From: Chloroflexota bacterium
Lineage (GTDB): Bacteria; Chloroflexota; Anaerolineae; Caldilineales; Caldilineaceae
Assembly: GCA_003577005.1 (NCBI GenBank)
Contig: QEUW01000141.1
Span: 1,416 to 26,258 of the forward strand
Direction: 5' to 3'
Length of the DNA: 24,843 bases
Shown here: positions 5,604-24,843 of the stretch, piece by piece
Layout: each line of letters opens with the position of its first letter
Numbering within the stretch: position 1 is the first letter of the stretch
Notes under the pieces: generated by a model
The model's input: the letters and a program-made list of their open reading frames with translations, nothing else
The model's database searches: none
What the model was told of the DNA's origin: nothing
Translations under genes and position numbers: made by a program

Positions 5604-6018
5604 GCACACTCCTTCATCATCGGTTTTTCGCGAGACAGCTTGAAACTTGCTCAACCGATTCGCCGCCATTGTAGCATGGTTCTTGGCGGCCAGGATCAGT
5701 CAAATACATGAAAATAGGCTGACAATCTTTGTAACTTGATCACATCGGATTCGCACCTGAGCAACCGGCACAGCAACGAGCTTACGATCCTGCTCATTAT
5801 ATGCACTACCGATGTGCATTGTCACCACGCCTGCCAGCCGAACATGGCAATGCAATCGTTTGCATTCGGATCTTAATAGAATGCCGTTGCTGTTCAGTTA
5901 CACATTGTGATATACGTAACAATCGGCTCTAAGGTTCCGCTGTGACAAGCACTGAAGAGGCCTGGCGTATCCAAGCCGGACGCCAGGGTGATGCAGCTAA
6001 ATTTCTAGCTGGCGCTGA
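5604..6018. other. Gene-free spacer with small hairpins
   Basis: No convincing coding region is visible. Small inverted repeats are present: AATGCAA/TTGCATT at 5849-5866, CCTGGCGT/ACGCCAGG at 5961-5987 and CAGCTA/TAGCTG at 5994-6011. The last two lie just beyond the GyrA-CTD-like gene's stop on its strand and may help end its transcript. Part of the spacer should hold the promoter of the ParB-like gene, but I could not pick a convincing one. Confidence 0.4.
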
Positions 6019-6049
6019 GGTGCATCGCACGCTACGCGTGCAACGCACC
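6019..6049. repeat. GGTGC-type hairpin repeat, copy 1
   Basis: GGTGCATCGCACGC pairs with GCGTGCAACGCACC around a 3-nt loop, with two mismatches. It lies 3 nt beyond the stop codon of the GyrA-CTD-like gene, a terminator-like position. Related arms occur at 12412, 16241, 21636 and 21695. Confidence 0.65.
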
Positions 6050-9102: not shown

Positions 9103-9132
9103 ATCTTGGTAGACGAAATCTTGGTAGACGAA
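9103..9132. repeat. 15-bp perfect tandem duplication
   Basis: ATCTTGGTAGACGAA occurs at 9103-9117 and again at 9118-9132, in the spacer between the divergent SLT-fusion and histidine kinase genes. It is non-coding, so there is no frame effect. Confidence 0.85.
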
Positions 9133-14593: not shown

Positions 14594-14664
14594 ACTTTTT
14601 GAAGTATGTTGTACTTCCGACGCGGAAGCCGCAATCAACCAAGCAAAAGGACCGGTTCCAGAAC

Positions 14665-15210
14665 ATGCGACTCATCCCACGTAAACTTTTCTTGACGCGT
14701 GGCGTCGGTATCCACCGCGAAAAGTTGACTAGCTTTGAAATGGCCCTGCGTGAGGCCGGTATTGCCCAATTCAACCTTGTGCGCGTCTCGTCCATCTTCC
14801 CGCCCGGCTGCAAGATCATCGAGCGCGAGGAGGGTCTGCCGCTGTTACAGGCCGGCGAGATCGTCTTTGCCGTCATGGCCGAAATGTCTACCAACGAGCC
14901 GGGCCGCCGCATTGCCTCCTCCATCGGCGTGGCGCGCCCGTCCGACCCGGATAAGTATGGCTATCTCTCTGAACACCACAGCTACGGCCAGACAGAACAA
15001 GAAGCCGGAGACTATGCCGAAGACCTCGCCGCTACCATGCTCGCCACTACGCTCGGCATCCCCTTTGACGCCGACAAGGATTACAATGCCCGCCGCGAAC
15101 AATATGGCATGGGTGGCGAGATTGTCGAAACAACCAGCATCACTATGGCCGTTACCGCCGCACCGGGCGGCGTCTGGACCACGACCATCGCCGCAGCCAT
15201 CCTGGTCTAA
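14665..15210 (+). CDS. Pyruvoyl-dependent arginine decarboxylase
   Basis: Converts arginine to agmatine, the first step of agmatine-route polyamine synthesis. The 181-residue proenzyme has the hallmark self-cleavage site in LVRVSSIFPPGC: family enzymes cut between the two serines (S42/S43 here), making the second the pyruvoyl cofactor. The region IVFAVMAEMSTNEPGRRIASSIGVA and the C-terminal segment with TSITMAV are also family-like. The start is ATG 14665 (MRLIPRKLFLTRG), matching where homologues begin; an in-frame TTG at 14599 would add 22 unlike residues. The ribosome-binding site is poor (AAAGGA about 13 nt upstream). It lies 71 bp after the hybrid kinase and 68 bp before agmatinase, which uses its product. 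An archaeal-type PvlArgDC rather than the SpeA type. Confidence 0.93.
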   Translation: MRLIPRKLFLTRGVGIHREKLTSFEMALREAGIAQFNLVRVSSIFPPGCKIIEREEGLPLLQAGEIVFAVMAEMSTNEPGRRIASSIGVARPSDPDKYGYLSEHHSYGQTEQEAGDYAEDLAATMLATTLGIPFDADKDYNARREQYGMGGEIVETTSITMAVTAAPGGVWTTTIAAAILV

Positions 15211-15217
15211 CGGTTAA

Positions 15218-15276
15218 TGGTTCATGGTTAACGGTCAACGGTTAACCATGAACCACTAACGGTTAACCATGAACCA
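15218..15276. repeat. Inverted plus tandem repeat between decarboxylase and agmatinase genes
   Basis: TGGTTCATGGTTAAC (15218-15232) and GTTAACCATGAACCA (15241-15255) form a perfect 15-bp stem with an 8-nt loop. AACGGTTAACCATGAACCA occurs at 15237-15255 and again at 15258-15276, a 21-bp tandem period. The second copy ends 2 nt before the agmatinase ATG and occupies the place of a ribosome-binding site; none is visible, so the repeat may influence agmatinase expression. Confidence 0.8.
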
Positions 15277-15278
15277 TT

Positions 15279-16163
15279 ATGACGCCCAACAACTTCCTTG
15301 GCCTTCCTTCCCCTTATAGCGACCTTGAGACTGCCCGCGTGTTGGTGCTTCCCATCCCCTTTGAGGCGACGGTGAGCTATGGGCAAGGAACAGCCGCTGG
15401 CCCGGCCGCTATCATCGCTGCCTCGCAACAGGTGGAGTTGTACGACCGCGAGTTCGACCGCGAACCAGCGCTCGACTATGGCGTTCACACGCTGCCGGCG
15501 CTATCCTTGCCCGCCGACCCTGCCGCTGCCATCAGCCAGATCGCCGATGCGGTGGCCGCCATCGCCCGGACCGGCAAACTGGTCGTGGGCCTGGGTGGCG
15601 AACACACGGTGAGCGTGGGTGTCGGCCGCGGCCTCCTGGCCGCTCTGGACGAACCCCTCACCGTCGTCCAGATCGACGCCCATAGCGACCTGCGCGACCA
15701 GTATGAAGAGAACCCCTACAGCCACGCCTGTATCGCTCGCCGTCTGCTCGAAGATGAGCGCATTGAGCAGGTGTTGCAACTGGGCATCCGCTCGGTCTGC
15801 ACCGAAGAGGTGGCTTTTGCGCGCGCCAACCCAGAACGGGTGCGCATCTGGTACGCCGAGGAGGTCCACGCCGGCGACTGGCAGGGCGAACTCATCGCCC
15901 GTCTCAGCGGTCGCCGTGTCTATCTTACCATCGATGTGGACAGCCTCGACCCGGCTATCGTCCCCGCCACCGGCACGCCCGAACCCGACGGGCTCACCTG
16001 GCGCGAGACGCTGGCGGCCATCCGCACCGTGGCCGAAGCCGGGCTGATCAGCGGGCTGGACTGTGTCGAACTCGCCCCCTACCCCGGCCAGCACGCCGCC
16101 GATTTTGCCGTGGCCAAGCTGGTCTACAAGACGATTACATACGCGATGGAACATAGAACGTAG
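15279..16163 (+). CDS. speB: Agmatinase (agmatine ureohydrolase, arginase family)
   Basis: Hydrolyses agmatine to putrescine and urea with a binuclear manganese centre. The 294-residue product keeps all arginase-family metal motifs: GLGGEHTVS (about 103-111), QIDAHSDLRD (about 130-139), and TIDVDSLDPAIVPATGTPEPDG (about 216-237). SHACIARR and the C-terminal ELAPYPGQHAADFAVAKLVYK are also typical. The ATG at 15279 begins MTPNNFLGLP. There is no clear ribosome-binding site because a tandem repeat fills the leader. It sits between the decarboxylase that makes its substrate and the deoxyhypusine-synthase-like gene, which plausibly uses its product. Confidence 0.93.
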   Translation: MTPNNFLGLPSPYSDLETARVLVLPIPFEATVSYGQGTAAGPAAIIAASQQVELYDREFDREPALDYGVHTLPALSLPADPAAAISQIADAVAAIARTGKLVVGLGGEHTVSVGVGRGLLAALDEPLTVVQIDAHSDLRDQYEENPYSHACIARRLLEDERIEQVLQLGIRSVCTEEVAFARANPERVRIWYAEEVHAGDWQGELIARLSGRRVYLTIDVDSLDPAIVPATGTPEPDGLTWRETLAAIRTVAEAGLISGLDCVELAPYPGQHAADFAVAKLVYKTITYAMEHRT

Positions 16164-16207
16164 AACGTAGAGCGTAGAACAGACATCCACCGTTCTACGT
16201 TCTACGT
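16151..16207. repeat. ACGTAGA heptad hairpin
   Basis: The left arm (16151-16168) has repeats of ACGTAGA-type heptads and pairs with the right arm CCGTTCTACGTTCTACGT (16190-16207) with one mismatch near each end. It overlaps the last codons of agmatinase (stop at 16163). Confidence 0.65.
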
Positions 16208-16240
16208 GTATTGACAAATCAAGTTGGGTAGCCGCCGGGA

Positions 16241-16272
16241 GGTGCAACGCACTTGACAAAGTGCGTCGCACC
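16241..16272. repeat. GGTGC-type hairpin repeat, copy 3
   Basis: GGTGCAACGCACTT (16241-16254) pairs with AAGTGCGTCGCACC (16259-16272) around a 4-nt loop with one mismatch. It lies 22 bp upstream of the deoxyhypusine-synthase-like start. Confidence 0.7.
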
Positions 16273-16294
16273 TGGATTGCATGACCTAAATCCA

Positions 16295-17275
16295 ATGCAA
16301 TATGCCAACGAGGTTAAGGCCTTTCTCAAGCATCATTATCGCCACTTCAATGCGGCGGCGGTGGTGGATGCGGCGGAAGGGTACCGCACGTTTGTCGAGA
16401 ACGGCGGCAAGATGCTGCTGGCGATGGCCGGGGCGATGAGCAGCGCCGAACTGGGATTGTCGCTGGCCGAGATGATCCGCCGGGAGAAGATCCACGCCAT
16501 CAGTTGCACCGGCGCCAATCTGGAAGAGGATGTCTACAATCTGGTGGCGCACGACCACTATGTGCGCATCCCCAACTGGCGCGACCTGACGCCTGAAGAC
16601 GAACACGAGTTGCTCGCGCGCCATCTCAATCGAGTCACCGACACCGCCATTCCCGAAGAAGAGGCGATCCGCCGGATCGAGGATGCGATCCTCGACGAGT
16701 GGACGCAGGCGGACCAGAAGGGCGAGCGCCACTTCCCCCACGAGTTTTTCTACCGGATTCTGCTGAGCGGCAAACTGGCCCACTACTACCAGATCGACCC
16801 CAAAGACAGCTGGCTGATGGCTGCGGCCGAGCGCAATCTCCCCCTCTTTGTTCCCGGTTGGGAGGACTCGACCAACGGCAACATTTACGCCTCACACTGT
16901 ATCAGCGGTGCGATCAAAAATGTCCACACCGTGCGGACGGGCATCGAATATATGATGGCGTTGTCCCACTGGTACACCGAAGAGGCGCCGCAACAGCCCA
17001 TTGGCTTTTTCCAGATCGGGGGCGGCATTGCCGGCGACTTCCCCATCTGCGTCGTCCCCATGCTGCGCCAGGACCTGGAGATGGATGAGATCCCGCTCTG
17101 GCGCTACTTCTGCCAGATCAGCGACTCGACCACCAGCTATGGCTCCTATTCAGGGGCGGTGCCCAACGAGAAGATCACCTGGGAGAAGCTCGCCATCGAC
17201 ACCCCCAAATATATGATCGAGTCCGACGCCACCATCGTCGCCCCGCTGGTCTTCGCCTACGTGCTGGCGGATTGA
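16295..17275 (+). CDS. Deoxyhypusine synthase-like protein (possible homospermidine synthase)
   Basis: The 326-residue product belongs to the deoxyhypusine synthase family, with a Rossmann-like NAD-binding fold. Visible blocks include HFNAAAVVDAAEGYRTFVENGGKMLLAMAGAMSSAELG near the N-terminus, GANLEEDVYN, IGGGIAGDFPICVVPML and the active-site region ITWEKLAIDTPKYMIESDATIVAPL, where K298 aligns with the catalytic lysine. In eukaryotes and archaea the enzyme transfers aminobutyl from spermidine to eIF5A, which bacteria lack. Bacterial homologues are thought to act on small amines instead, for example making homospermidine; the substrate here is inferred from the agmatinase next door. The start ATG 16295 (MQYANEVKAFLKHHYRHF) fits homologues; an in-frame TTG at 16253 lies inside the hairpin repeat. 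No ribosome-binding site is obvious. Confidence 0.85.
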   Translation: MQYANEVKAFLKHHYRHFNAAAVVDAAEGYRTFVENGGKMLLAMAGAMSSAELGLSLAEMIRREKIHAISCTGANLEEDVYNLVAHDHYVRIPNWRDLTPEDEHELLARHLNRVTDTAIPEEEAIRRIEDAILDEWTQADQKGERHFPHEFFYRILLSGKLAHYYQIDPKDSWLMAAAERNLPLFVPGWEDSTNGNIYASHCISGAIKNVHTVRTGIEYMMALSHWYTEEAPQQPIGFFQIGGGIAGDFPICVVPMLRQDLEMDEIPLWRYFCQISDSTTSYGSYSGAVPNEKITWEKLAIDTPKYMIESDATIVAPLVFAYVLAD

Positions 17276-17317
17276 GCAAACATCGATCGTACCCGCAAGC
17301 AGCATATCCAGGAACGT

Positions 17318-17345
17318 AGGTGCGGTTAGTAACCGCACCTTTTTG
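17318..17345 (+). terminator. Rho-independent terminator after the polyamine genes
   Basis: AGGTGCGGTTA (17318-17328) and TAACCGCACCT (17330-17340) form a perfect GC-rich stem followed by a T-run (17340-17344), 42 bp after the stop of the deoxyhypusine-synthase-like gene. Confidence 0.85.
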
Positions 17346-17635
17346 ATCCGCAACGCCTATCTCTCTCGCCACCGCCAGGCCGGACAGCACCCCACAACCC
17401 GCCCTGCACCCGACCACTTCCTTACAAAAAGCTGACAAAACTGGCTGCCATCTTCCTCACAGTTTGAGAATTTGGTATACTCTGTTCAACCAGAAGCTGC
17501 CGTCCGGCGGCGCATAGACCGGTCCATTCGCCCTACGTTTCCCAAACTGATAGCGCCCTTGTTGCGCAGTTCGCAACAACCCAATCATAGCGTACGTGGC
17601 ATGTCGCTACTCACACTTTGTGAAGGAGAGATGCC
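17346..17635 (+). promoter_or_regulatory. Spacer with an extended -10 promoter and leader hairpin before the small HTH gene
   Basis: TGG-TATACT (17473-17481) is an extended -10 without a clear -35. A hairpin TTGTTGCG/CGCAACAA (17559-17566/17572-17579, 5-nt loop) lies in the presumed 155-nt leader. No gene is seen in this stretch. Confidence 0.4.
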
Positions 17636-17842
17636 ATGGGACGCAAGCAAGACGATCGACGATTGGATGAGATTTTGGCTGCGATTTTGCGTCAATCCGA
17701 ACAGAAGGCAGGGTCAATTGCAACCCAGCTTGGTCTGGATGATAAAACCATTCAGCGAGCATTGGTGCAGCTCGAAGACCGCGGCGATCTGTTGTTCCAG
17801 GATGACAAGGGCCGGTTGAGTTGGTTTGGTCAACGCAAGTAA
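17636..17842 (+). CDS. Small winged-helix DNA-binding protein
   Basis: The 68-residue product looks like a complete small HTH/winged-helix domain. RRLDEILAAILRQSEQKAGSIATQLGLDDKTIQRALVQLEDRGDLLFQD has the helix-turn-helix in SIATQLGLDDKTIQRALVQLEDRG, followed by a wing (DLLFQDDKGRLSWFG). It has no other domain. The ribosome-binding site AAGGAG is 7-8 nt upstream of ATG 17636; a nearer ATG at 17631 is out of frame. It is followed after 24 bp by the operator-promoter module of wyl-cas3, so it is a candidate regulator of the cas genes, along with the WYL domain itself. It may equally be unrelated. The specific family is not recognised. Confidence 0.65.
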   Translation: MGRKQDDRRLDEILAAILRQSEQKAGSIATQLGLDDKTIQRALVQLEDRGDLLFQDDKGRLSWFGQRK

Positions 17843-17860
17843 GTTTGTGAGGGCGCCGAA

Positions 17861-17913
17861 AAAAGTGGCGTTATTTGGCAACTATATGTGCTATGCTGTT
17901 GCCAAATAACGCC
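17861..17913 (+). promoter_or_regulatory. Operator-promoter module upstream of wyl-cas3
   Basis: GGCGTTATTTGGCAAC (17867-17882) and GTTGCCAAATAACGCC (17898-17913) are perfect 16-bp inverted repeats separated by 15 nt. An extended -10 (TGC-TATGCT, 17889-17897) lies between the arms, so a bound protein would block transcription. A module with the same left arm and spacing lies at 21795-21839 before casA. Confidence 0.7.
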
Positions 17914-17938
17914 CAGCCCCCAATATAGGAGCAGAGCA

Positions 17939-18100
17939 ATGAGCCAGCGTACTGAAGAGTATCAGCGATATGAATTTATTTATGAGATGGAGCGCCTGTA
18001 TCTTCAAGCGGCCTTTAGTGATCGGCCTTTAGTGATGAAGAGATGGGAGAGCGATTGGGTACTGATCGCACCAATATCTGGCGCATTCGCAAGCTCATGA
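17939..18100 (+). pseudogene. Frameshifted 5' end of the wyl-cas3 gene (HTH N-terminus)
   Basis: This reading frame starts at ATG 17939 with AGGAG 7 nt upstream, the best start of the locus. It encodes MSQRTEEYQRYEFIYEMERL and on to LQAAFSD (28 residues), which is the first helix of a WYL-type HTH. It then enters a second copy of a 14-bp duplication, changes frame and stops at 18098-18100. With only one copy of the repeat it would run on as E-E-M-G-E-R-L-G-T-D-R-T into the long downstream frame, giving a 1225-residue protein. Confidence 0.8.
18009..18036. repeat. 14-bp perfect tandem duplication causing a frameshift
   Basis: CGGCCTTTAGTGAT occurs at 18009-18022 and again at 18023-18036. Fourteen is not a multiple of three, so the extra copy shifts the wyl-cas3 reading frame inside the HTH. 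Removing one copy restores the expected HTH sequence exactly. Confidence 0.95.
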
Positions 18101-21100
18101 TGGACAAGATGTACATCCCGATTGAGCAACATCCGACCGAGCGCGGCAAGTGGTATATCCACCCTGAGTATAGCATCACCCATATTGCTTTCAGCCGCGA
18201 GCAGATGGCTGCGCTCTACCTGGCCGGGCGGCGACTCCAACAGCAGACGCGCACCAGCCAGCAACACGTAGCAGATATGCTCCAAAAAGTCGCTCATGCG
18301 CTGCGCAAGCCGTTAGCGGAAAGCTTGGTGCAAGCGGCTGACCATGTGCTTGCCCAAGAGCAAGATGAACAACAGAAACAGGTCTTTGCAACCATCGTTC
18401 GCTGCTGGCTCGACCAAATCCCCGTCCGCATTGTCCACCGTAAGCTTCACGGCGAGCCTCGCAACTACGTGGTACATCCGTGGCAGATCGAACCTGCCGT
18501 CTGGGGTGATGGCAATTATCTGCTCGGCTATAGCGAATATCACGGCAAACTCGCCACCTTCAAGCTGGCCCGCATCGAAAAGGCAACCGAGTCGGTGGGA
18601 CGTTTCAGAGCCGCCCCCGGCGATTTTAACATCCACGATCTACTCAATTTTGCCTGGGGTATCTGGCACGCTGATGAAGAACCGGTCACCGTGCAATTGC
18701 GCTTCAACAAATGGGCAGTGCCCAGGCTGAGGGAGTCGATCTGGCACCCGCAAGCTCGTCTCTTTCCGCCTGATGAGGAAGGTAGTTGCGTATGGGAGGT
18801 GCGGGTTGCCGAATGGCGCGAGATGGAATCATGGGTGAAGGGCTGGGGCAGTAATGTAGAAGTGATCGAACCAATAGAGTTGCGCGAACGGCTTGTCGCA
18901 GAGGTTGGTCGCCTGGCAAGGACCTACGCCACCGAAACGCCGCCACCCGCACATCGCCTGCTCTGGGCCAAGACCGATGCAGCAGGACACACGCACCCGC
19001 TCTTTTGTCACTTGATCGATGTCGGGCAGGTGGCGTTGGCGCTGTGGAACGATGTGCTGACCAGCGGTTTTCAAGCACAAATTGCCGAAGCGCTTGGCAC
19101 TGACCCAGCCAGCGCGGGTCGGCTCTTCGCCTTCTGGAGTGGAACGCATGACATCGGCAAGGCCTCTCCTAATTTTCAGCGGAAGTTCGGTCCTGCGCAA
19201 TCACAATTACAACGCATCGGTTTCACATTCCCTCCTGTTTTTGGCAAAAATCAGTGCTACCACGCAACGATATCGGCCCTGATCCTGCCCGCACTACTCA
19301 CGGCGGAGACAGACCTGGATGCGGACCAGGCCAGAGAAGTGGCGCAAGCGCTGGGAGGCCATCACGGCTCCTGGCCCACCGCAGTGGTCCGCCGCCAGCA
19401 CGAAGCACAAATTGGTGATGAACGCTGGCAAGAGGCGCAGCGCACCCTCCTACGCGAACTGGTCGACCTCTTCAACCCGCCCACCATCCGCCAATTAGGG
19501 CGCGACGATACAGAACGAGGTGCGATTCTCGTCCTCCTGTCCGGCCTGGCTTCGGTGGCGGACTGGATGGGTTCGATGAGCGACTATTTTCAGTTTAGCA
19601 CGGCCCATGTTGCGCCGGAGCTCTATGTTCAGATCGCAGCGCGTCGCGCTGAACGCGTGCTCAAAAAACTGGGCTGGACCGACTGGCAACCGACGGCAAC
19701 AGAGCTATCCTTTGAAGCGTTGCATGGCTTTGGCCCGCGCCCGGCCCAACAAGCGGTGATCGATCTCGCGCCCGGCGAGCGTGAGCCAACCCTGATCATC
19801 GCCGAGGTGCCGACCGGCGCTGGCAAGACCGAACTGGCCCTTTACCTGGCGGATCGGTGGGCGGTGACACGCCGGCAACAGGGTCTCTATGTCGCCATGC
19901 CTACCCAGGCCACCAGCAACCAGATGTGGGAACGGGTCGGTAAATTTCTCCGCCGGCGCTATCCGCAGGAGAAGATCAACTTTCATCTGATCCACGGCAA
20001 TGCACAGTGGCGGGATGATCTACCTGATCTCGAATTCACTACGGGGGATGAGAGTGCTCAAGGCAATGTCGAGGCGCAGAGTTGGTTCCTGCCCCGCAAG
20101 CGCACGCTGTTAGCGCCTTTTGCGGTGGGGACAGTCGACCAGGCATTGTTGAGCACCTTACAAACACGCCACTTTTTTGTACGTCTGTTTGGCCTGAGCC
20201 GCAAGACGGTCATCTTTGACGAAGTCCACGCCTACGACACCTACATGAGTTCGCTCTTTCAACGGCTATTGGTCTGGTTGCGGGCGGTGGGTTCGTCTGT
20301 GATCGTCCTCTCGGCCACATTGCCAGCCTCTACCCGGCGTGAGCTAGTTGCGGCCTGGCGGGGTCGCACCGATGGCCTGGATACCCTCTCAGGGTGCTAT
20401 CCCGCGGTGACCGTTGCTGCGGCAAGTGAGCTTTACAGTCAGTCGCTGCCGGTGGACGACACACGCACCATCAACCTCGAATGGATTGGGCACAACCCAG
20501 AAGCTATCGTGGCTGAACTGCGCCCCCGCCTTCAAAACGGGGGATGCGTCGCCATCATCTGCAATCGCGTGCGACGAGCGCAGGAAATCTACTCGGTGCT
20601 CCAAGCCGCCCAACTCGTGCCAGATGACGACTTGATCCTCTTCCACGCCCGCACGCCTGGCATCTGGCGCAATGCCACGGAAAAGGATGTGTTGGACCGT
20701 TTTGGCAAGGAGGCGCAGGAACGCAGGCCGGCCATCGTGGTGGCGACGCAGGTGATCGAGCAAAGCCTGGACCTGGACTTTGACCTCATGGTCAGCGACC
20801 TTGCACCGGTTGACCTCATCTTGCAGCGCGCGGGTCGTCTGCACCGTCACGAACGTGACACTAGACCTCTGGGGTTGGAGCGTCCAACACTCCTGATCAC
20901 GACCCCAGCCAACAAGAACGATGGGGCGCCCGATTGGAGTGGGGATGAGTATGTCTACGAACCGTACGTCCTCTTCCGCTCGCTTCTCACCTTACGTGCG
21001 GCCGACGAGCAGCTAGTTCTCCCCGTGCAAACAGTGGACCTGATTGAATCCGTCTACGGGGAAGAAGCGAAGATGCCCGACCTGCCCTCAGAATGGACTG

Positions 21101-21630
21101 ACGGGTTCAACAAGGCGCGCCAGTCGATGGCAGCAAGGCAGCGTAAAGCAGAAATGGAAGCATACAACCGGCTGGTTGCCCTGCCCGCCTATGAAGAGTT
21201 GCTCTGGCTGCCCAACGATCTCTTGGCTGAAGAGGAGGCCGACGTACATCAATCGCTACAGGCGCTCACCCGCTTGATTGAGCCATCGGTGCGGCTGGTC
21301 TGTCTGCACCAAGAAGCCGATGGCCTGGCGCTCGACCCCGGCGGACCGCCCGCTGTCGATCTGAAAACCAAACCCTCGCATGAGCAGACCAAAGAACTGG
21401 CGCAGCGCGTCGTCACCGTCACGCATCGCGCCATCTACAACTATTTCACGCGGCAGAATACGCCATCCGGTTGGCGCGAACACACCTTGCTGCACACGCA
21501 TCGCGCCGCCATCTTTGTCGATGGCGAGTGTCGTCTGGAGGGGACCGATTATGTTTTGCGGCTGTCGCGTCGCCTGGGCCTGGAGATTGTCAAGATAGGG
21601 TCATCGGCATCACCCGACGCCGAAGATTGA
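18043..21630 (+). CDS. cas3: WYL-domain regulator fused to Cas3 nuclease-helicase (type I-E), 5' end frameshifted
   Basis: The open frame encodes 1195 residues (add 30 for the restored protein). Residues 1-50 are the rest of a WYL-family HTH (GERLGTDRTNIWRIRKLM, recognition helix). A WYL domain with GNYLLGYSEYHGKLATFKLARI covers about 125-185, and a C-terminal extension domain about 213-292. After a short linker (ATETPPPAH) comes a complete Cas3. Its HD nuclease has H323, H369-D370, H440, H441 and D507; its helicase has Walker A EVPTGAGK (588-595), DEVH (726-729), SAT (757-759) and QRAGRLHR (928-935). Cas3 degrades DNA marked by Cascade. No methionine lies between about residues 262 and 511 near the fusion point, so separate Cas3 translation would need a non-ATG start. 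ATG 18043 has no proper ribosome-binding site. Followed by casA. Confidence 0.88.
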   Translation: MGERLGTDRTNIWRIRKLMMDKMYIPIEQHPTERGKWYIHPEYSITHIAFSREQMAALYLAGRRLQQQTRTSQQHVADMLQKVAHALRKPLAESLVQAADHVLAQEQDEQQKQVFATIVRCWLDQIPVRIVHRKLHGEPRNYVVHPWQIEPAVWGDGNYLLGYSEYHGKLATFKLARIEKATESVGRFRAAPGDFNIHDLLNFAWGIWHADEEPVTVQLRFNKWAVPRLRESIWHPQARLFPPDEEGSCVWEVRVAEWREMESWVKGWGSNVEVIEPIELRERLVAEVGRLARTYATETPPPAHRLLWAKTDAAGHTHPLFCHLIDVGQVALALWNDVLTSGFQAQIAEALGTDPASAGRLFAFWSGTHDIGKASPNFQRKFGPAQSQLQRIGFTFPPVFGKNQCYHATISALILPALLTAETDLDADQAREVAQALGGHHGSWPTAVVRRQHEAQIGDERWQEAQRTLLRELVDLFNPPTIRQLGRDDTERGAILVLLSGLASVADWMGSMSDYFQFSTAHVAPELYVQIAARRAERVLKKLGWTDWQPTATELSFEALHGFGPRPAQQAVIDLAPGEREPTLIIAEVPTGAGKTELALYLADRWAVTRRQQGLYVAMPTQATSNQMWERVGKFLRRRYPQEKINFHLIHGNAQWRDDLPDLEFTTGDESAQGNVEAQSWFLPRKRTLLAPFAVGTVDQALLSTLQTRHFFVRLFGLSRKTVIFDEVHAYDTYMSSLFQRLLVWLRAVGSSVIVLSATLPASTRRELVAAWRGRTDGLDTLSGCYPAVTVAAASELYSQSLPVDDTRTINLEWIGHNPEAIVAELRPRLQNGGCVAIICNRVRRAQEIYSVLQAAQLVPDDDLILFHARTPGIWRNATEKDVLDRFGKEAQERRPAIVVATQVIEQSLDLDFDLMVSDLAPVDLILQRAGRLHRHERDTRPLGLERPTLLITTPANKNDGAPDWSGDEYVYEPYVLFRSLLTLRAADEQLVLPVQTVDLIESVYGEEAKMPDLPSEWTDGFNKARQSMAARQRKAEMEAYNRLVALPAYEELLWLPNDLLAEEEADVHQSLQALTRLIEPSVRLVCLHQEADGLALDPGGPPAVDLKTKPSHEQTKELAQRVVTVTHRAIYNYFTRQNTPSGWREHTLLHTHRAAIFVDGECRLEGTDYVLRLSRRLGLEIVKIGSSASPDAED

Positions 21631-21635
21631 TTGCA

Positions 21636-21670
21636 GAGGTGCGATGCACTTTTCAAGTGCGTTGCACCTC
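21636..21670. repeat. GGTGC-type hairpin repeat, copy 4
   Basis: GAGGTGCGATGCACTT (21636-21651) pairs with AAGTGCGTTGCACCTC (21655-21670): 16 bp with two G-T pairs and a 3-nt loop. It starts 5 bp after the cas3 stop and could act as a terminator-like structure. Confidence 0.7.
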
Positions 21671-21694
21671 TCGCAATGGGGGATGCCGGCGCAC

Positions 21695-21723
21695 GTGCAT
21701 CGCACCTTGCAGGTGCAACGCAC
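21695..21723. repeat. GGTGC-type hairpin repeat, copy 5 (inverted order)
   Basis: GTGCATCGCACCT (21695-21707) pairs with AGGTGCAACGCAC (21711-21723), 13 bp with two mismatches and a 3-nt loop. It sits 24 bp after copy 4, forming a pair of adjacent hairpins as in REP doublets. Confidence 0.6.
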
Positions 21724-21794: not shown

Positions 21795-21839
21795 AAAAGT
21801 GGCGTTATTTGACAACAACCTGTGGTATCTTGTTGCCAA
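21795..21839 (+). promoter_or_regulatory. Operator-promoter module upstream of casA
   Basis: The left half (21795-21816, with GGCGTTATTTGACAAC) matches the wyl-cas3 module at 21 of 22 positions. The right half keeps GTTGCCAA (21832-21839) at the same 15-nt distance but diverges beyond it. The extended -10 TGG-TATCTT (21823-21831) again lies between the halves. Confidence 0.7.
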
Positions 21840-21863: not shown

Positions 21864-23396
21864 ATGCAACCCACGTTCAATCTGATCGACCAACCCTGGA
21901 TCGGCGCAGTCGACCACGAGGGCCGGCTGCAAGAGTACAGCCTGCGCGACCTGTTGTTGCAGGCCCACGAACTGCGCAGTTTGCACGATGACTCACCGCT
22001 GGTGATCGCCGCCCTGCTGCGCGTGATCCTGGCCCTGCTGCACAGGGTCTACGACGGGCCGCGCAACCGCGGCGAATGGCAAAAAATCTGGCAGGCCGGG
22101 CGTTTTGATGCGGAGCGCATCGACCGCTATTTTGCTGAGTGGCGCGAACGATTTGAGCTTTTCGGCAGTGGTCACCGCTTCTACCAATCCCCAGAACCTC
22201 TTGAGGAAAAAGGGACAGCGCCACTCGTCGTATTGCTGTATGTGTTTGGGGCTGGTGGGAATGCAACATTATTTGACCATACAAGCGCTGACCCTGAGGT
22301 TGAACTCACCCCTGCTGTTGCTGCTCGCCTGTTACTGACAGTTCACCTTTACGGTTTCTGTGGACGTGTCAGTGGCCCCGCCTATTTCTCGGATGGTCCC
22401 AGCGTCCGCGATGTGCTTTTTTTCGCCGAAGGAGATTCATTGTTCGAGACACTGGTCTTGAATCTGCTCGAATACAATGCAGAGCGCCCCATCCACCAGA
22501 ACGGAGATGACCGCCCGGCTTGGGAAATGGACGATCCCTATCAACCCGCCCGTCAAGTTCCCTTTGGCTATCTCGACTACCTCACCTGGCAGGATCGGCG
22601 CATCCGGCTCATTGCCAAACCCACGCTGGCTGGTATCCGTGTAAGTGAAATGGTGCTATTGCCAGGGCTAAGTCTCGATACCGGATTTATCAATCAAGAC
22701 CCCATGAAGCATTTTCGAGTTGATGAGAAACGCGGGTACATCTCACTCCGTTTCCAGGAAAACCGTGCGCTCTGGCGTGACAGCGTCGCCCTTTTGAAAT
22801 TCAACTCAGAAAACTACCGCCCACCAGCGGTCTTTGCCTGGCTTGATCTACTTGTCGAACGTGGCATTCTTGACCGTTCGAAGACCTTGCGCTGCATGGC
22901 GCTGGGCATGGCGACAGAGGCAGGCAAACAATTCATCGATTTCTATCGGAGTGAATATCTGCCACTGCCGCTAGCCTATCTCGACAATCCAGACCTCGTC
23001 CCTACCCTCGAAACGGCATTAACGGCCGCCGAACATGTCGCCAGCGAGCTATGGAAAGCCACCGGCACGCTGGCGCGCTGGCTGCTGGTGCTGGACGAGG
23101 AAAGCGAGCGCCAACCCAATGCGGAGGATGTGCGTGATCTGCGCGCCACCATGGCCGCCGAGCGCCGCTACTGGGCCCGGTTAGAACCCCAGTTTCGCCA
23201 GACCATGCAGGCGATTCCACAAGATGCCGCAGCGGCCATGACTACCTGGTTTGACTGGCTGCGCCAGAGCGCCTGGGATGTTTTTAACCAGGTGTGTGAT
23301 GGCCTGGGGGACGATCCACGCGCGCTCAAAGCAGTTGTCCGCGGCCGGGAGCAGTTGGCGCGTGGTTTGGGTGCTGTATTGAAGATCGAACTATAA
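21864..23396 (+). CDS. casA: Type I-E Cascade large subunit Cse1/CasA (Cas8e)
   Basis: Cse1 is the single large subunit of type I-E Cascade; it recognises the PAM and recruits Cas3. The 510-residue product has the usual Cse1 opening, FNLIDQPWIGAVDHEGRLQEYSLRDLLLQAHELRSL. It also has an early helical part (ALLRVILALLHRVY), FELFGSGHRFYQSPEP, NATLFDHTSADPEVELTPAVAARLLLTVHLYGFCGRVSG, and a C-terminal helical bundle (about 370-510). Length is normal for the family. ATG 21864 was chosen for the GGAGG 4 nt upstream; a 14-residue in-frame extension reaches back into the operator. It has its own promoter module matching that of wyl-cas3 and leads a casA-casB-casC transcript. Confidence 0.93.
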   Translation: MQPTFNLIDQPWIGAVDHEGRLQEYSLRDLLLQAHELRSLHDDSPLVIAALLRVILALLHRVYDGPRNRGEWQKIWQAGRFDAERIDRYFAEWRERFELFGSGHRFYQSPEPLEEKGTAPLVVLLYVFGAGGNATLFDHTSADPEVELTPAVAARLLLTVHLYGFCGRVSGPAYFSDGPSVRDVLFFAEGDSLFETLVLNLLEYNAERPIHQNGDDRPAWEMDDPYQPARQVPFGYLDYLTWQDRRIRLIAKPTLAGIRVSEMVLLPGLSLDTGFINQDPMKHFRVDEKRGYISLRFQENRALWRDSVALLKFNSENYRPPAVFAWLDLLVERGILDRSKTLRCMALGMATEAGKQFIDFYRSEYLPLPLAYLDNPDLVPTLETALTAAEHVASELWKATGTLARWLLVLDEESERQPNAEDVRDLRATMAAERRYWARLEPQFRQTMQAIPQDAAAAMTTWFDWLRQSAWDVFNQVCDGLGDDPRALKAVVRGREQLARGLGAVLKIEL

Positions 23397-23431: not shown

Positions 23432-23497
23432 GACCTCCGGGAGGTGACCACAGACTGTCTGGCAGATGATGCTGATTCTGGTCACCTCCCGGAGGTC
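23432..23497. repeat. 19-bp perfect inverted repeat between casA and casB
   Basis: GACCTCCGGGAGGTGACCA (23432-23450) and its exact complement (23479-23497) flank a 28-nt spacer that starts with CAGACTGTCTG, itself a small palindrome. CCTCCGGGAGG within each arm is also palindromic. It could be a repeat insertion or an RNA processing or attenuation site inside the Cascade operon. Confidence 0.8.
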
Positions 23498-23529: not shown

Positions 23530-24060
23530 ATGAGTTCACCACGTAATGAATTTATCGAATACCTGGAGCAAATACGCGACGGGAGTGACCAATCTCGCGC
23601 CCGCGCCGTGCTCGCCACGCTACGGCGTGGGCTGGGCAAGGAGCCTGGCGAAGACGCCAACGTCATGCGCTACGTCGTGCCGCGGCTGCCCGCTGAAGCG
23701 CAGCCGTGGCGCGACCGCCCCTATTTCCTGATTGCCTCGCTCTTCGCCTTCCACCCCGACCCTGGCGGCGCCGGCGACATGGGCAAACACTTTGCCGCCA
23801 TCCGCCAGGCAACCCAGAGCGAAGAGGCGGTCGAACGCCGTTTTACCGCGTTGCTCGATACGCACGAGGACGACCTGGCCTATCACCTGCGCCAGGCAGT
23901 GAGTCTCTGCAAAGCCAATCATGTACCCATCGACTGGCATCAGCTCTTCCGCAATGTACAAGGTTGGAGCCATCCGAGTCGCTGGGTGCAACGGACCTGG
24001 GCGCGTTCCTTCTGGGGGCGCACTCAGGACGAGCAACAGCCTGCGTCTGAAAACAACTGA
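23530..24060 (+). CDS. casB: Type I-E Cascade small subunit Cse2/CasB
   Basis: Cse2 forms the dimeric belly of type I-E Cascade and steadies the displaced DNA strand. The 176-residue, mainly helical product has family-like segments: SRARAVLATLRRGLGKEPGEDANVMRYVVPRLP near the N-terminus, PYFLIASLFAFHP, EEAVERRFTALLDTHEDDLAYHLRQAVSLCKANHVPIDWHQLFRNVQGW, and the C-terminal VQRTWARSFWG. Basic residues in the first helices would contact nucleic acid. The start ATG 23530 has AAAGGAG 5 nt upstream. It lies 133 bp after casA, separated by a strong inverted repeat, and 44 bp before casC. Confidence 0.92.
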   Translation: MSSPRNEFIEYLEQIRDGSDQSRARAVLATLRRGLGKEPGEDANVMRYVVPRLPAEAQPWRDRPYFLIASLFAFHPDPGGAGDMGKHFAAIRQATQSEEAVERRFTALLDTHEDDLAYHLRQAVSLCKANHVPIDWHQLFRNVQGWSHPSRWVQRTWARSFWGRTQDEQQPASENN

Positions 24061-24104: not shown

Positions 24105-24843
24105 ATGTTTATCGAACTACACCTGATCCAGAACTTTGTCCCTGCCAACCTCAACCGCGACGATACGGGGTCCCCCAAGGATTGCGAATTTGGCGGCCAC
24201 CGCCGCGCCCGCATCTCATCGCAATGTCTCAAACGCTCAATCCGCACTAACGAAGTCTTCGCCGAGACGACCAAGGTGCCAATTAGTCAGCGTACGCATT
24301 ATCTGGCAACCCTGCTGCAGAAAGCTCTCAAGGACAGCGGCAAGTCTAAAGATGCCATCAGCGAGATCACCATTGATCTGGCCCATACGTTCACCACCAA
24401 ACCAGGAAAAGCGGTTAAACAAGAGAAAGACGATCCACAGAAGACAGCCATTCTGGCATTTATCAGTGAATCAGAAGTTCAGGATATTGCACAGAAGCTT
24501 CTGGATCGCTGGGATGAGTTGATGGAGGATGAAAAGGCGCGCAAGAAGGCGCTCACAGAAATTGTGCAAGAGATGGTGAAAGCATACTATGGACGCGTCA
24601 GCGCTCCAGACATTGCATTGTTTGGCCGGATGTTGACAAGCCATCCTCAACTAGACCTCGAAGCCGCCTGCCAGGTGGCGCACGCTATTTCCACCCACCG
24701 GGTCAGCATGGAGATGGACTACTTCACCGCGGTGGACGATGTGCGCGAAGCCAACGAAGAGACCGGCGCCGGTCACATCAACACGCTGGGGTTCAACTCT
24801 TCCTGCTTCTACCACTACGCCCGTATCGACTGGCGGCAATTGT
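24105..24843 (+). CDS. casC: Type I-E Cascade backbone subunit Cas7e/CasC, partial (3' end outside window)
   Basis: Cas7e forms the six-copy backbone that holds the crRNA. About 246 codons are present and the frame is still open at the window edge; family members are about 350 residues. The start reads MFIELHLIQNFVPANLNRDD, followed by GSPKDCEFGGHRRARISSQCLKRSIR, the typical Cas7e N-terminal RRM and RNA-contacting region. Further on, DIALFGRML and HRVSMEMDYFTAVDDVREANEETGAGHINT are very characteristic of the family. The ATG at 24105 has AAGGAG 7-8 nt upstream. casD, casE, cas1 and cas2 and the CRISPR array would be expected beyond the window. Confidence 0.92.
   Translation, partial: MFIELHLIQNFVPANLNRDDTGSPKDCEFGGHRRARISSQCLKRSIRTNEVFAETTKVPISQRTHYLATLLQKALKDSGKSKDAISEITIDLAHTFTTKPGKAVKQEKDDPQKTAILAFISESEVQDIAQKLLDRWDELMEDEKARKKALTEIVQEMVKAYYGRVSAPDIALFGRMLTSHPQLDLEAACQVAHAISTHRVSMEMDYFTAVDDVREANEETGAGHINTLGFNSSCFYHYARIDWRQL

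What the first reader, a model, noticed from the sequence alone, without database searches (positions are those of the whole stretch)
18009..18036. 14-bp tandem duplication breaks wyl-cas3; removing one copy restores a 1225-residue protein
Seen: CGGCCTTTAGTGAT is exactly doubled inside the HTH coding region. The frame from the well-placed ATG 17939 dies at 18100; deleting one copy joins it exactly to the long frame (F-S-D-E-E-M-G-E-R-L-G). Such a slippable repeat could switch the defence system on and off (phase variation), be a recent loss of a costly nuclease, or be a sequencing or assembly error. Only Cas3 and the regulator would be affected; Cascade genes stay intact.
Basis: seen in the sequence. 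Interest (0 to 1): 0.85.

Follow-up and report, generated by a model that had tools for sequence, protein, structure and literature searches.

The report
Frameshifted Cas3 carrying built-in gene regulator
A short doubled stretch of DNA splits the gene of a CRISPR DNA-shredding enzyme that also carries its own gene-control head; the doubling looks like a one-off recent mutation (or sequencing artefact), but the regulated enzyme it exposes, with matching control sites before two parts of the defence system, is the more interesting find.

Summary
In detail: CGGCCTTTAGTGAT is exactly doubled at 18009-18036 and splits a type I-E HTH-WYL-Cas3 gene. Relatives show one copy: 76 of the 80 proteins that could be placed (90 examined) have exactly the single-copy spacing, and none of 42 distinct loci is split here. 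The rest of the gene shows no decay. So the two-copy form is private and recent, or an artefact; reads would decide. I found no sign of an evolved phase-variation locus.

The surroundings matter more. A perfect 16-nt inverted repeat with 15-nt spacer lies before cas3, and the motif recurs before cse1. The site also precedes the same HTH-WYL head fused to a type I-C Cas3 in two genomes and, with one mismatch, a stand-alone HTH-WYL gene beside cas3, but it is not family-wide. The head resembles DriD, solved bound to single-stranded DNA. Internal starts (TTG 18055; ATGA 18097-18100) could still yield headless WYL-Cas3. Whether the fused head or a small upstream HTH protein reads the site is open.

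The parts
17636..17842 (+). small winged-HTH-like gene (68 aa), recurring neighbour upstream of HTH-WYL genes; alternative candidate regulator
   Evidence: tblastn against the 121 loci then held: 12 rows at E<1e-4, 9 distinct loci; L109 79%, L120 69%, L121 60% identity; only weak HTH family matches, below cut-offs
17867..17913 (.). operator-like site 1: perfect 16-nt inverted repeat with 15-nt spacer upstream of cas3; TATGCT (-10-like, by eye) in the spacer
17939..18100 (+). 5' piece of HTH-WYL-cas3: 53-codon ORF encoding helix 1 of the winged HTH, then out of frame, stop TGA 18098-18100
18009..18022 (+). duplication copy 1
18023..18036 (+). duplication copy 2
18043..21630 (+). WYL + WCX + Cas3 (HD, helicase, C-terminal) frame, 1195 aa, no further break
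18055..18057 (+). in-frame TTG with a strong Shine-Dalgarno-like sequence (-7.3 kcal/mol; null quantiles 5% -6.3, 1% -8.4): possible internal start
18097..18100 (+). ATGA: stop of the 5' piece overlaps an in-frame ATG of the WYL-Cas3 frame (possible stop-restart; weak Shine-Dalgarno, -1.5)
21801..21839 (.). operator-like site 2 upstream of cse1: same left arm with one change, same 15-nt spacer, right arm matching over 8 nt only
21864..23396 (+). cse1/casA, type I-E, matches its family over nearly full length
23530..24060 (+). cse2/casB, type I-E
24105..24842 (+). cas7/casC, type I-E, runs off the window

Best explanation
A private, recent 14-bp tandem duplication (a spontaneous replication or repair error captured in the sequenced lineage) has split a type I-E HTH-WYL-Cas3 gene between helices 1 and 2 of its N-terminal winged HTH. 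Normally, I infer, this head is a DriD-like regulator that sits on a GGCAAC-N15-GTTGCC operator before cas3 and before cse1 and tunes both; its WYL domain could sense single-stranded DNA. In the two-copy allele the DNA-binding head is lost. Cas3 is lost too, or is made at a reduced level as headless WYL-Cas3 from TTG 18055 or by stop-restart at 18097. Cascade genes in the window are intact but their control is probably altered. Shown: duplication, frames, single-copy relatives, operator sequences, fold likeness. Inferred: who binds the operator, sign of regulation, internal starts, reality of the allele.
For: Relatives are single-copy at protein level (76 of 80 placed, of 90 examined) and DNA level (42 distinct loci in one frame; the window is the only split row of 75). 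No decay: the window keeps 83 of 83 columns conserved at 97% or more and 121 of 124 at 90-97%; its miss rate is ordinary among 61 relatives. In the AlphaFold model of the relative P0014 the HTH helices are 6-24, 29-36 and 40-52; the duplication follows the residue equivalent to 29. Operator; the stricter pattern hit 2 of 46 genomes of the order, both directly before HTH-WYL-Cas3; the same site stands before HTH-WYL joined to a type I-C Cas3 and, with one mismatch, before a stand-alone HTH-WYL gene followed by a Cas3 helicase gene. DriD is the best WYL-protein match of relatives' heads by sequence (P0007, E 1.6e-7) and fold (P0014 model, E 4e-14).
Against: No reads or second isolate, so an artefact is not excluded. 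A conserved small HTH protein just upstream could be the operator's reader instead. The site is not family-wide: of 41 loci scored, 4 beat local control windows at p<0.05 (about 2 expected) and 2 at p<0.01, one of these (L087) a lopsided match at an unusual distance. Of the 7 genomes of the order with a protein match only 2 carry the strict site. The shorter core pattern with one mismatch is unspecific (100 of 396 genomes; the backward-read control hit about 35 by my count of the table). The fold matches to DriD have modest TM-scores (0.28 by query, 0.56 by target). Searches for another two-copy allele or a same-species one-copy allele found none.
Confidence: 0.6

Rival explanations
1. Assembly or sequencing artefact: the duplication is a false join or false insertion and the organism has an ordinary single-copy gene.
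For: Exact two-copy repeat with no flanking extension (28 = 2 x 14); the gene is otherwise fully preserved; the window's protein is listed from a single public contig of 26,258 bases; a second exact duplication (15 x 2, 9103-9132) lies in the same window, against 14 (12 without double counts) in about 1.03 Mb of related loci.
Against: Exact tandem duplications of this size do occur in related loci. I noticed no other broken gene among the window proteins scanned, though several had no family match and so could not be judged. Short-read k-mers longer than 28 would resolve a 28-base repeat (general knowledge).
Confidence: 0.27
2. Evolved phase-variation locus: the repeat is a maintained slip site that switches Cas3 and its regulator on and off.
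For: Exact repeat, unit not a multiple of 3, in a defence gene; slippage could revert it (general knowledge).
Against: No relative examined shows a repeat at the site; two copies only. Searches for papers holding phase variation with cas3 and frameshift (4 listed) or CRISPR with phase variable and tandem duplication (1 listed) showed no such case in titles and abstract openings; a phase-variation review searched by word held neither CRISPR nor duplication.
Confidence: 0.07
3. Functional split: the duplication has been kept because it detaches the DNA-binding head and makes a headless WYL-Cas3 by internal starting.
For: TTG 18055 with strong Shine-Dalgarno and ATGA at 18097-18100; P0073, a 1198-aa relative, starts with Met-Met at the equivalent of 18097; WYL regulator and Cas3 are separate genes in some genomes.
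Against: The internal sites lie within conserved coding sequence and may be chance; P0073's upstream DNA was not seen and its start may be a gene-call or contig-edge effect.
Confidence: 0.06

Closest known systems
WYL domain fused to Cas3 in type I CRISPR-Cas (Makarova et al. 2014, PMC4012209, passages seen)
   Same: [quoted passage not shown] One search lists 90 relatives (the window's own included), each with the WYL domain PF13280.
   Different: Here an N-terminal winged HTH, a candidate operator before cas3 and before cse1, and the same head on type I-E and type I-C Cas3 are described; the passages seen do not mention these.
BrxR and relatives (PMC9122601, passages seen)
   Same: HTH-WYL regulator of a defence system; inverted repeats before its own gene and a poorer second site before a downstream operon.
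   Different: BrxR repeats are 11 bp with a 5-bp spacer, and BrxR is a stand-alone regulator; it is a weaker fold match here than DriD.
DriD of Caulobacter crescentus (PDB 8tp8, 9pfq, titles seen; papers not held)
   Same: Best WYL-protein match to relatives' heads by sequence (residues 26-322) and fold; solved bound to ssDNA and cognate DNA.
   Different: DriD is a stand-alone activator; ssDNA sensing by this Cas3-borne WYL is untested.
Sll7009 of Synechocystis (named in PMC9122601 passages)
   Same: HTH-WYL repressor of a CRISPR locus (type I-D).
   Different: Stand-alone protein; not compared by sequence here.

Membership tests
Type I-E Cas3 with N-terminal HTH-WYL | Cas3 HD, helicase and C-terminal domains | tested here: met
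   PF18019, PF22590, PF18395; TIGR01587 and TIGR01596 above their cut-offs; the full-length model NF007248 is below its own, 404 of 569 bits
Type I-E Cas3 with N-terminal HTH-WYL | type I-E Cascade genes adjacent | tested here: met
   (TIGR02547 cse1, TIGR02548 cse2, TIGR01869 cas7 above cut-off)
Type I-E Cas3 with N-terminal HTH-WYL | WYL and WCX domains in one frame with Cas3 | tested here: met
Type I-E Cas3 with N-terminal HTH-WYL | winged HTH in the same frame | tested here: not met
   broken by the duplication
Phase-variable (contingency) locus | repeat present at the site in relatives, with copy-number variation | tested here: not met
   no repeat-like insertion in 42 distinct loci or in 80 placed proteins (76 with the exact spacing; P0072 and P0076 +2 residues, P0087 -2, P0042 a poor placement). 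Same-species strains not available
Phase-variable (contingency) locus | mixed copy number within a population | not testable with these tools
   no reads
DriD-like HTH-WYL-WCX regulator | HTH-WYL-WCX architecture and fold | tested here: met
   on relatives P0014 and P0007 (62% and 73% identical to the window over residues 1-300 of the long frame), not on the window's own broken head
DriD-like HTH-WYL-WCX regulator | ssDNA binding by the WYL domain | not testable with these tools
   needs a binding assay
DriD-like HTH-WYL-WCX regulator | palindromic operator at controlled promoters | tested here: inconclusive
   site present and positioned, but its reader is unproven and it is not family-wide

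The most novel reading that the evidence does not exclude
A self-sensing Cas3: a DriD-like ssDNA-sensing transcription factor is built into the nuclease that makes single-stranded DNA, so that interference reports directly to an operator controlling cas3 and Cascade; the head with its operator is a portable cassette shared by type I-E and type I-C systems. The 14-bp duplication is a reversible detachment of the DNA-binding head that turns regulated Cas3 into headless, unregulated Cas3.
Probability: 0.12. Interest if true: 0.85.

Novelty: new variant of a known kind. Interest (0 to 1): 0.5.

Why it matters
WYL-Cas3 fusions were noted in 2014 (PMC4012209); in the passages and listings I saw, no target site is stated. 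A candidate operator before both cas3 and cse1, shared by a type I-E and two type I-C systems and by a stand-alone HTH-WYL version, makes the regulatory role directly testable by gel shift and reporter. If the WYL domain binds single-stranded DNA as DriD does, Cas3 would sense its own product, a direct feedback from interference to expression. The duplication itself, if real, is a natural mutant that separates head from nuclease.

Tried and rejected
Programmed -1 frameshift: no slippery heptamer in phase was found in the 5' piece, which includes the overlap zone 18022-18097; rejected. Compensating frame change in relatives: none seen. Old pseudogene: no decay. Other copies of the broken gene: a protein search with the 53-aa piece gave one hit, P0091, which continues in the normal single-copy frame; pattern scans of viral contigs for the two-copy and the one-copy DNA found nothing; the cap for metagenome contigs was 0. 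Genome contigs with the window protein alone gave 2 stretches, neither confirmed; with an alignment it gave 80 loci, 30-52% identical in the best segment. Family-wide operator: not supported (that call scored 41 loci, dropping duplicates, loci whose head match began after residue 30 and loci with under 140 nt upstream). Of the four exact matches listed there, one (G346) is the known cas3 site; the other three lie inside open frames of 469, 444 and 164 codons. Paper searches, 10 of 10 used. Papers seen as passages: PMC4012209, PMC10013973, PMC9122601, PMC11868660, PMC12669027; the others only as listings. Two DriD papers tried by DOIs recalled from memory are not held.

Full report
OBSERVATION. 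The 14-mer CGGCCTTTAGTGAT is exactly doubled at 18009-18036. The frame from ATG 17939 gives 53 codons and stops at TGA 18098-18100; the long frame is 18043-21630, 1195 aa, with WYL, WCX, Cas3 HD, helicase and Cas3 C-terminal domains. Downstream are type I-E cse1, cse2 and the start of cas7. In 300 dinucleotide-preserving shuffles no exact tandem duplication with a unit of 14-60 nt arose; the window has two. The second is 15 x 2 at 9103-9132, between genes.

ANCESTRAL STATE. A protein search with residues 1-300 of the long frame gave 90 proteins, the window's own included. The closest ones start MSQRNEEYQRYEFIYEMERxYL..xSDxEM and run straight through the site. I placed the two window pieces separately on 90 proteins (P0002-P0091): 80 matched both, and 76 of these have exactly the spacing of the single-copy form; P0072 and P0076 differ by +2 residues, P0087 by -2, and P0042, which lacks the HTH, was poorly placed. 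At DNA level the window is the only one of 75 rows whose head match falls in two frames. Of the others, 53 rows, 42 after removing duplicates, have one uninterrupted match across the site; these include stand-alone as well as fused HTH-WYL genes. So the two-copy form is derived and private as far as these data go. P0001, the window's own cluster, has two member sequences on one contig; the second member could not be read.

AGE AND REALITY. Among 61 relatives of at least 1150 aa, 83 columns are conserved at 97% or more and the window keeps all 83; of 126 columns at 90-97% it has 124 ungapped and keeps 121; 31 of the 61 relatives have a miss rate no higher than its own. So there is no decay: the break is very young, or Cas3 is still made, or the break is an artefact. 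Exact tandem duplications with units of 10-60 (low-complexity ones filtered out) occur 14 times in 1,026,830 bases of 109 related loci; two are double counts, since L007 and L105 overlap. Two in 24.8 kb is high, but on small numbers. Reads are needed. I put an artefact at 0.27.

WHAT THE BREAK DOES. An AlphaFold model of the relative P0014 (mean pLDDT 81.8) has HTH helices 6-24, 29-36 and 40-52. The duplication follows the residue equivalent to 29, so the second and third helices and the wing are out of frame with the first. Shine-Dalgarno energies on the window: ATG 17939 -6.5, ATG 18043 -1.5, TTG 18055 -7.3, ATG 18097 -1.5 (null quantiles: 5% -6.3, 1% -8.4, median -2.2). The stop of the 5' piece overlaps the ATG at 18097 as ATGA. 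No slippery heptamer in phase was found. A headless WYL-Cas3 is thus possible, not shown.

OPERATORS. A perfect 16-nt inverted repeat with 15-nt spacer, GGCGTTATTTGGCAAC-N15-GTTGCCAAATAACGCC, ends 25 nt before ATG 17939. The same left arm, one base changed, with the same 15-nt spacer and GTTGCCAA, ends 24 nt before the cse1 ATG 21864. The left-arm pattern with up to 3 mismatches has 4 matches in the window against 0.55 expected (none of 100 shuffles reached 4): both arms of site 1, site 2, and one 3-mismatch match inside cas7. Both spacers hold a -10-like TATGCT or TATCTT (read by eye; the promoter scan of 17250-18300 did not list one at site 1). In L109, whose head is 58% identical to that of P0007, the inner arms read TTGGTGAT and GTCACCAA: changed on both sides but still nearly palindromic.

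THE SITE FOLLOWS THE HEAD IN SOME RELATIVES. In L120 and L121 the same site (15 and 16 of 16 core positions) precedes an HTH-WYL head 61% and 60% identical to the window's. There the Cas3 part is very different (24% in the helicase, P0026), and the following genes are type I-C: cas5c and cas8c in both loci, and cas7, cas4 and cas1 in L125, the only one where they were tested. A search of 46 genomes of the order with the stricter pattern and one mismatch gave just these two places. A one-mismatch site (TTTGGCAAC-N15-GTTGCCAT) also lies 59 nt before a stand-alone HTH-WYL-WCX gene of 343 aa, which is followed by a Cas3 helicase gene (TIGR01587 above cut-off) and preceded by a small HTH-like gene (L156).

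AGAINST A GENERAL OPERATOR. Of the 7 genomes of the order with a protein match, only 2 carry the strict site; in 2 of the 7 (G141, G405) the match does not reach the start of the head, and G334 (L109) has the altered form. In 41 other loci the best site beat local control windows at p<0.05 in 4 (about 2 expected by chance) and at p<0.01 in 2 (L111, L087); the L087 match is lopsided and at -121. L111, L112 and L113 have the site at nearly the same distance, -62 to -64; L109 scored only 4 of 38 controls. The core pattern with one mismatch is common (100 of 396 genomes; the backward-read control hit about 35 by my count). The small HTH gene recurs beside the head (12 rows at E<1e-4, 9 distinct loci), so it remains a rival reader of the site. 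In L109 its recognition-helix region (assigned by eye) is nearly unchanged while the site's inner arms and the fused head's third helix differ, which leans, on one case, to the fused head.

LIKENESS. The head of P0007 matches DriD of Caulobacter crescentus by sequence (E 1.6e-7 over residues 26-322). In a fold search with the P0014 model the first matches are Cas3 structures, as expected from its HD part; the best WYL protein is DriD (E 4e-14; TM-score 0.28 by query, 0.56 by target), ahead of PafBC, CapW and BrxR. PDB titles describe DriD bound to ssDNA and cognate DNA. That Cas3 produces single-stranded DNA is established knowledge; that this WYL domain senses it is my inference. BrxR offers a precedent for two repeat sites, one before the regulator gene and a poorer one before the operon (PMC9122601, passages). 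WYL-Cas3 fusion as such was reported in 2014 (PMC4012209, passages).

VERDICT. The phase-variation reading is weak. Best reading: a recent private frameshift, or an artefact, in a Cas3 that carries its own DriD-like regulator with candidate operators before cas3 and Cascade. The regulator-operator cassette, found with type I-E and type I-C systems, is the part worth following.

Noticed in passing
window 9103-9132: A second exact tandem duplication (15 nt x 2) in the intergenic region between a transglycosylase-domain gene and a sensor-kinase gene.
   Followed up: partly
window 6018-6030, 16240-16273, 21637-21723: Dispersed palindromic element AGGTGCNNNGCAC: 7 matches against 0.06 expected, four of them in the cas3-cse1 gap.
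   Followed up: partly
window 15203-15277 and 16149-16207: Dense short repeats and inverted repeats flanking the arginase-family gene.
   Followed up: no
window 23432-23497: 21-nt near-perfect inverted repeat with 24-nt spacer between cse1 and cse2.
   Followed up: no
window 14599-17275: Pyruvoyl-dependent arginine decarboxylase, arginase-family and deoxyhypusine synthase genes in a row, a likely polyamine cluster beside the CRISPR genes.
   Followed up: no
L124, L125: Type I-C loci whose Cas3 bears the same kind of HTH-WYL head and operator as the window's type I-E Cas3: apparent head swap between subtypes.
   Followed up: yes
P0073: Relative of 1198 aa that begins with Met-Met at the equivalent of window 18097, lacking the HTH; upstream DNA not seen.
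   Followed up: no
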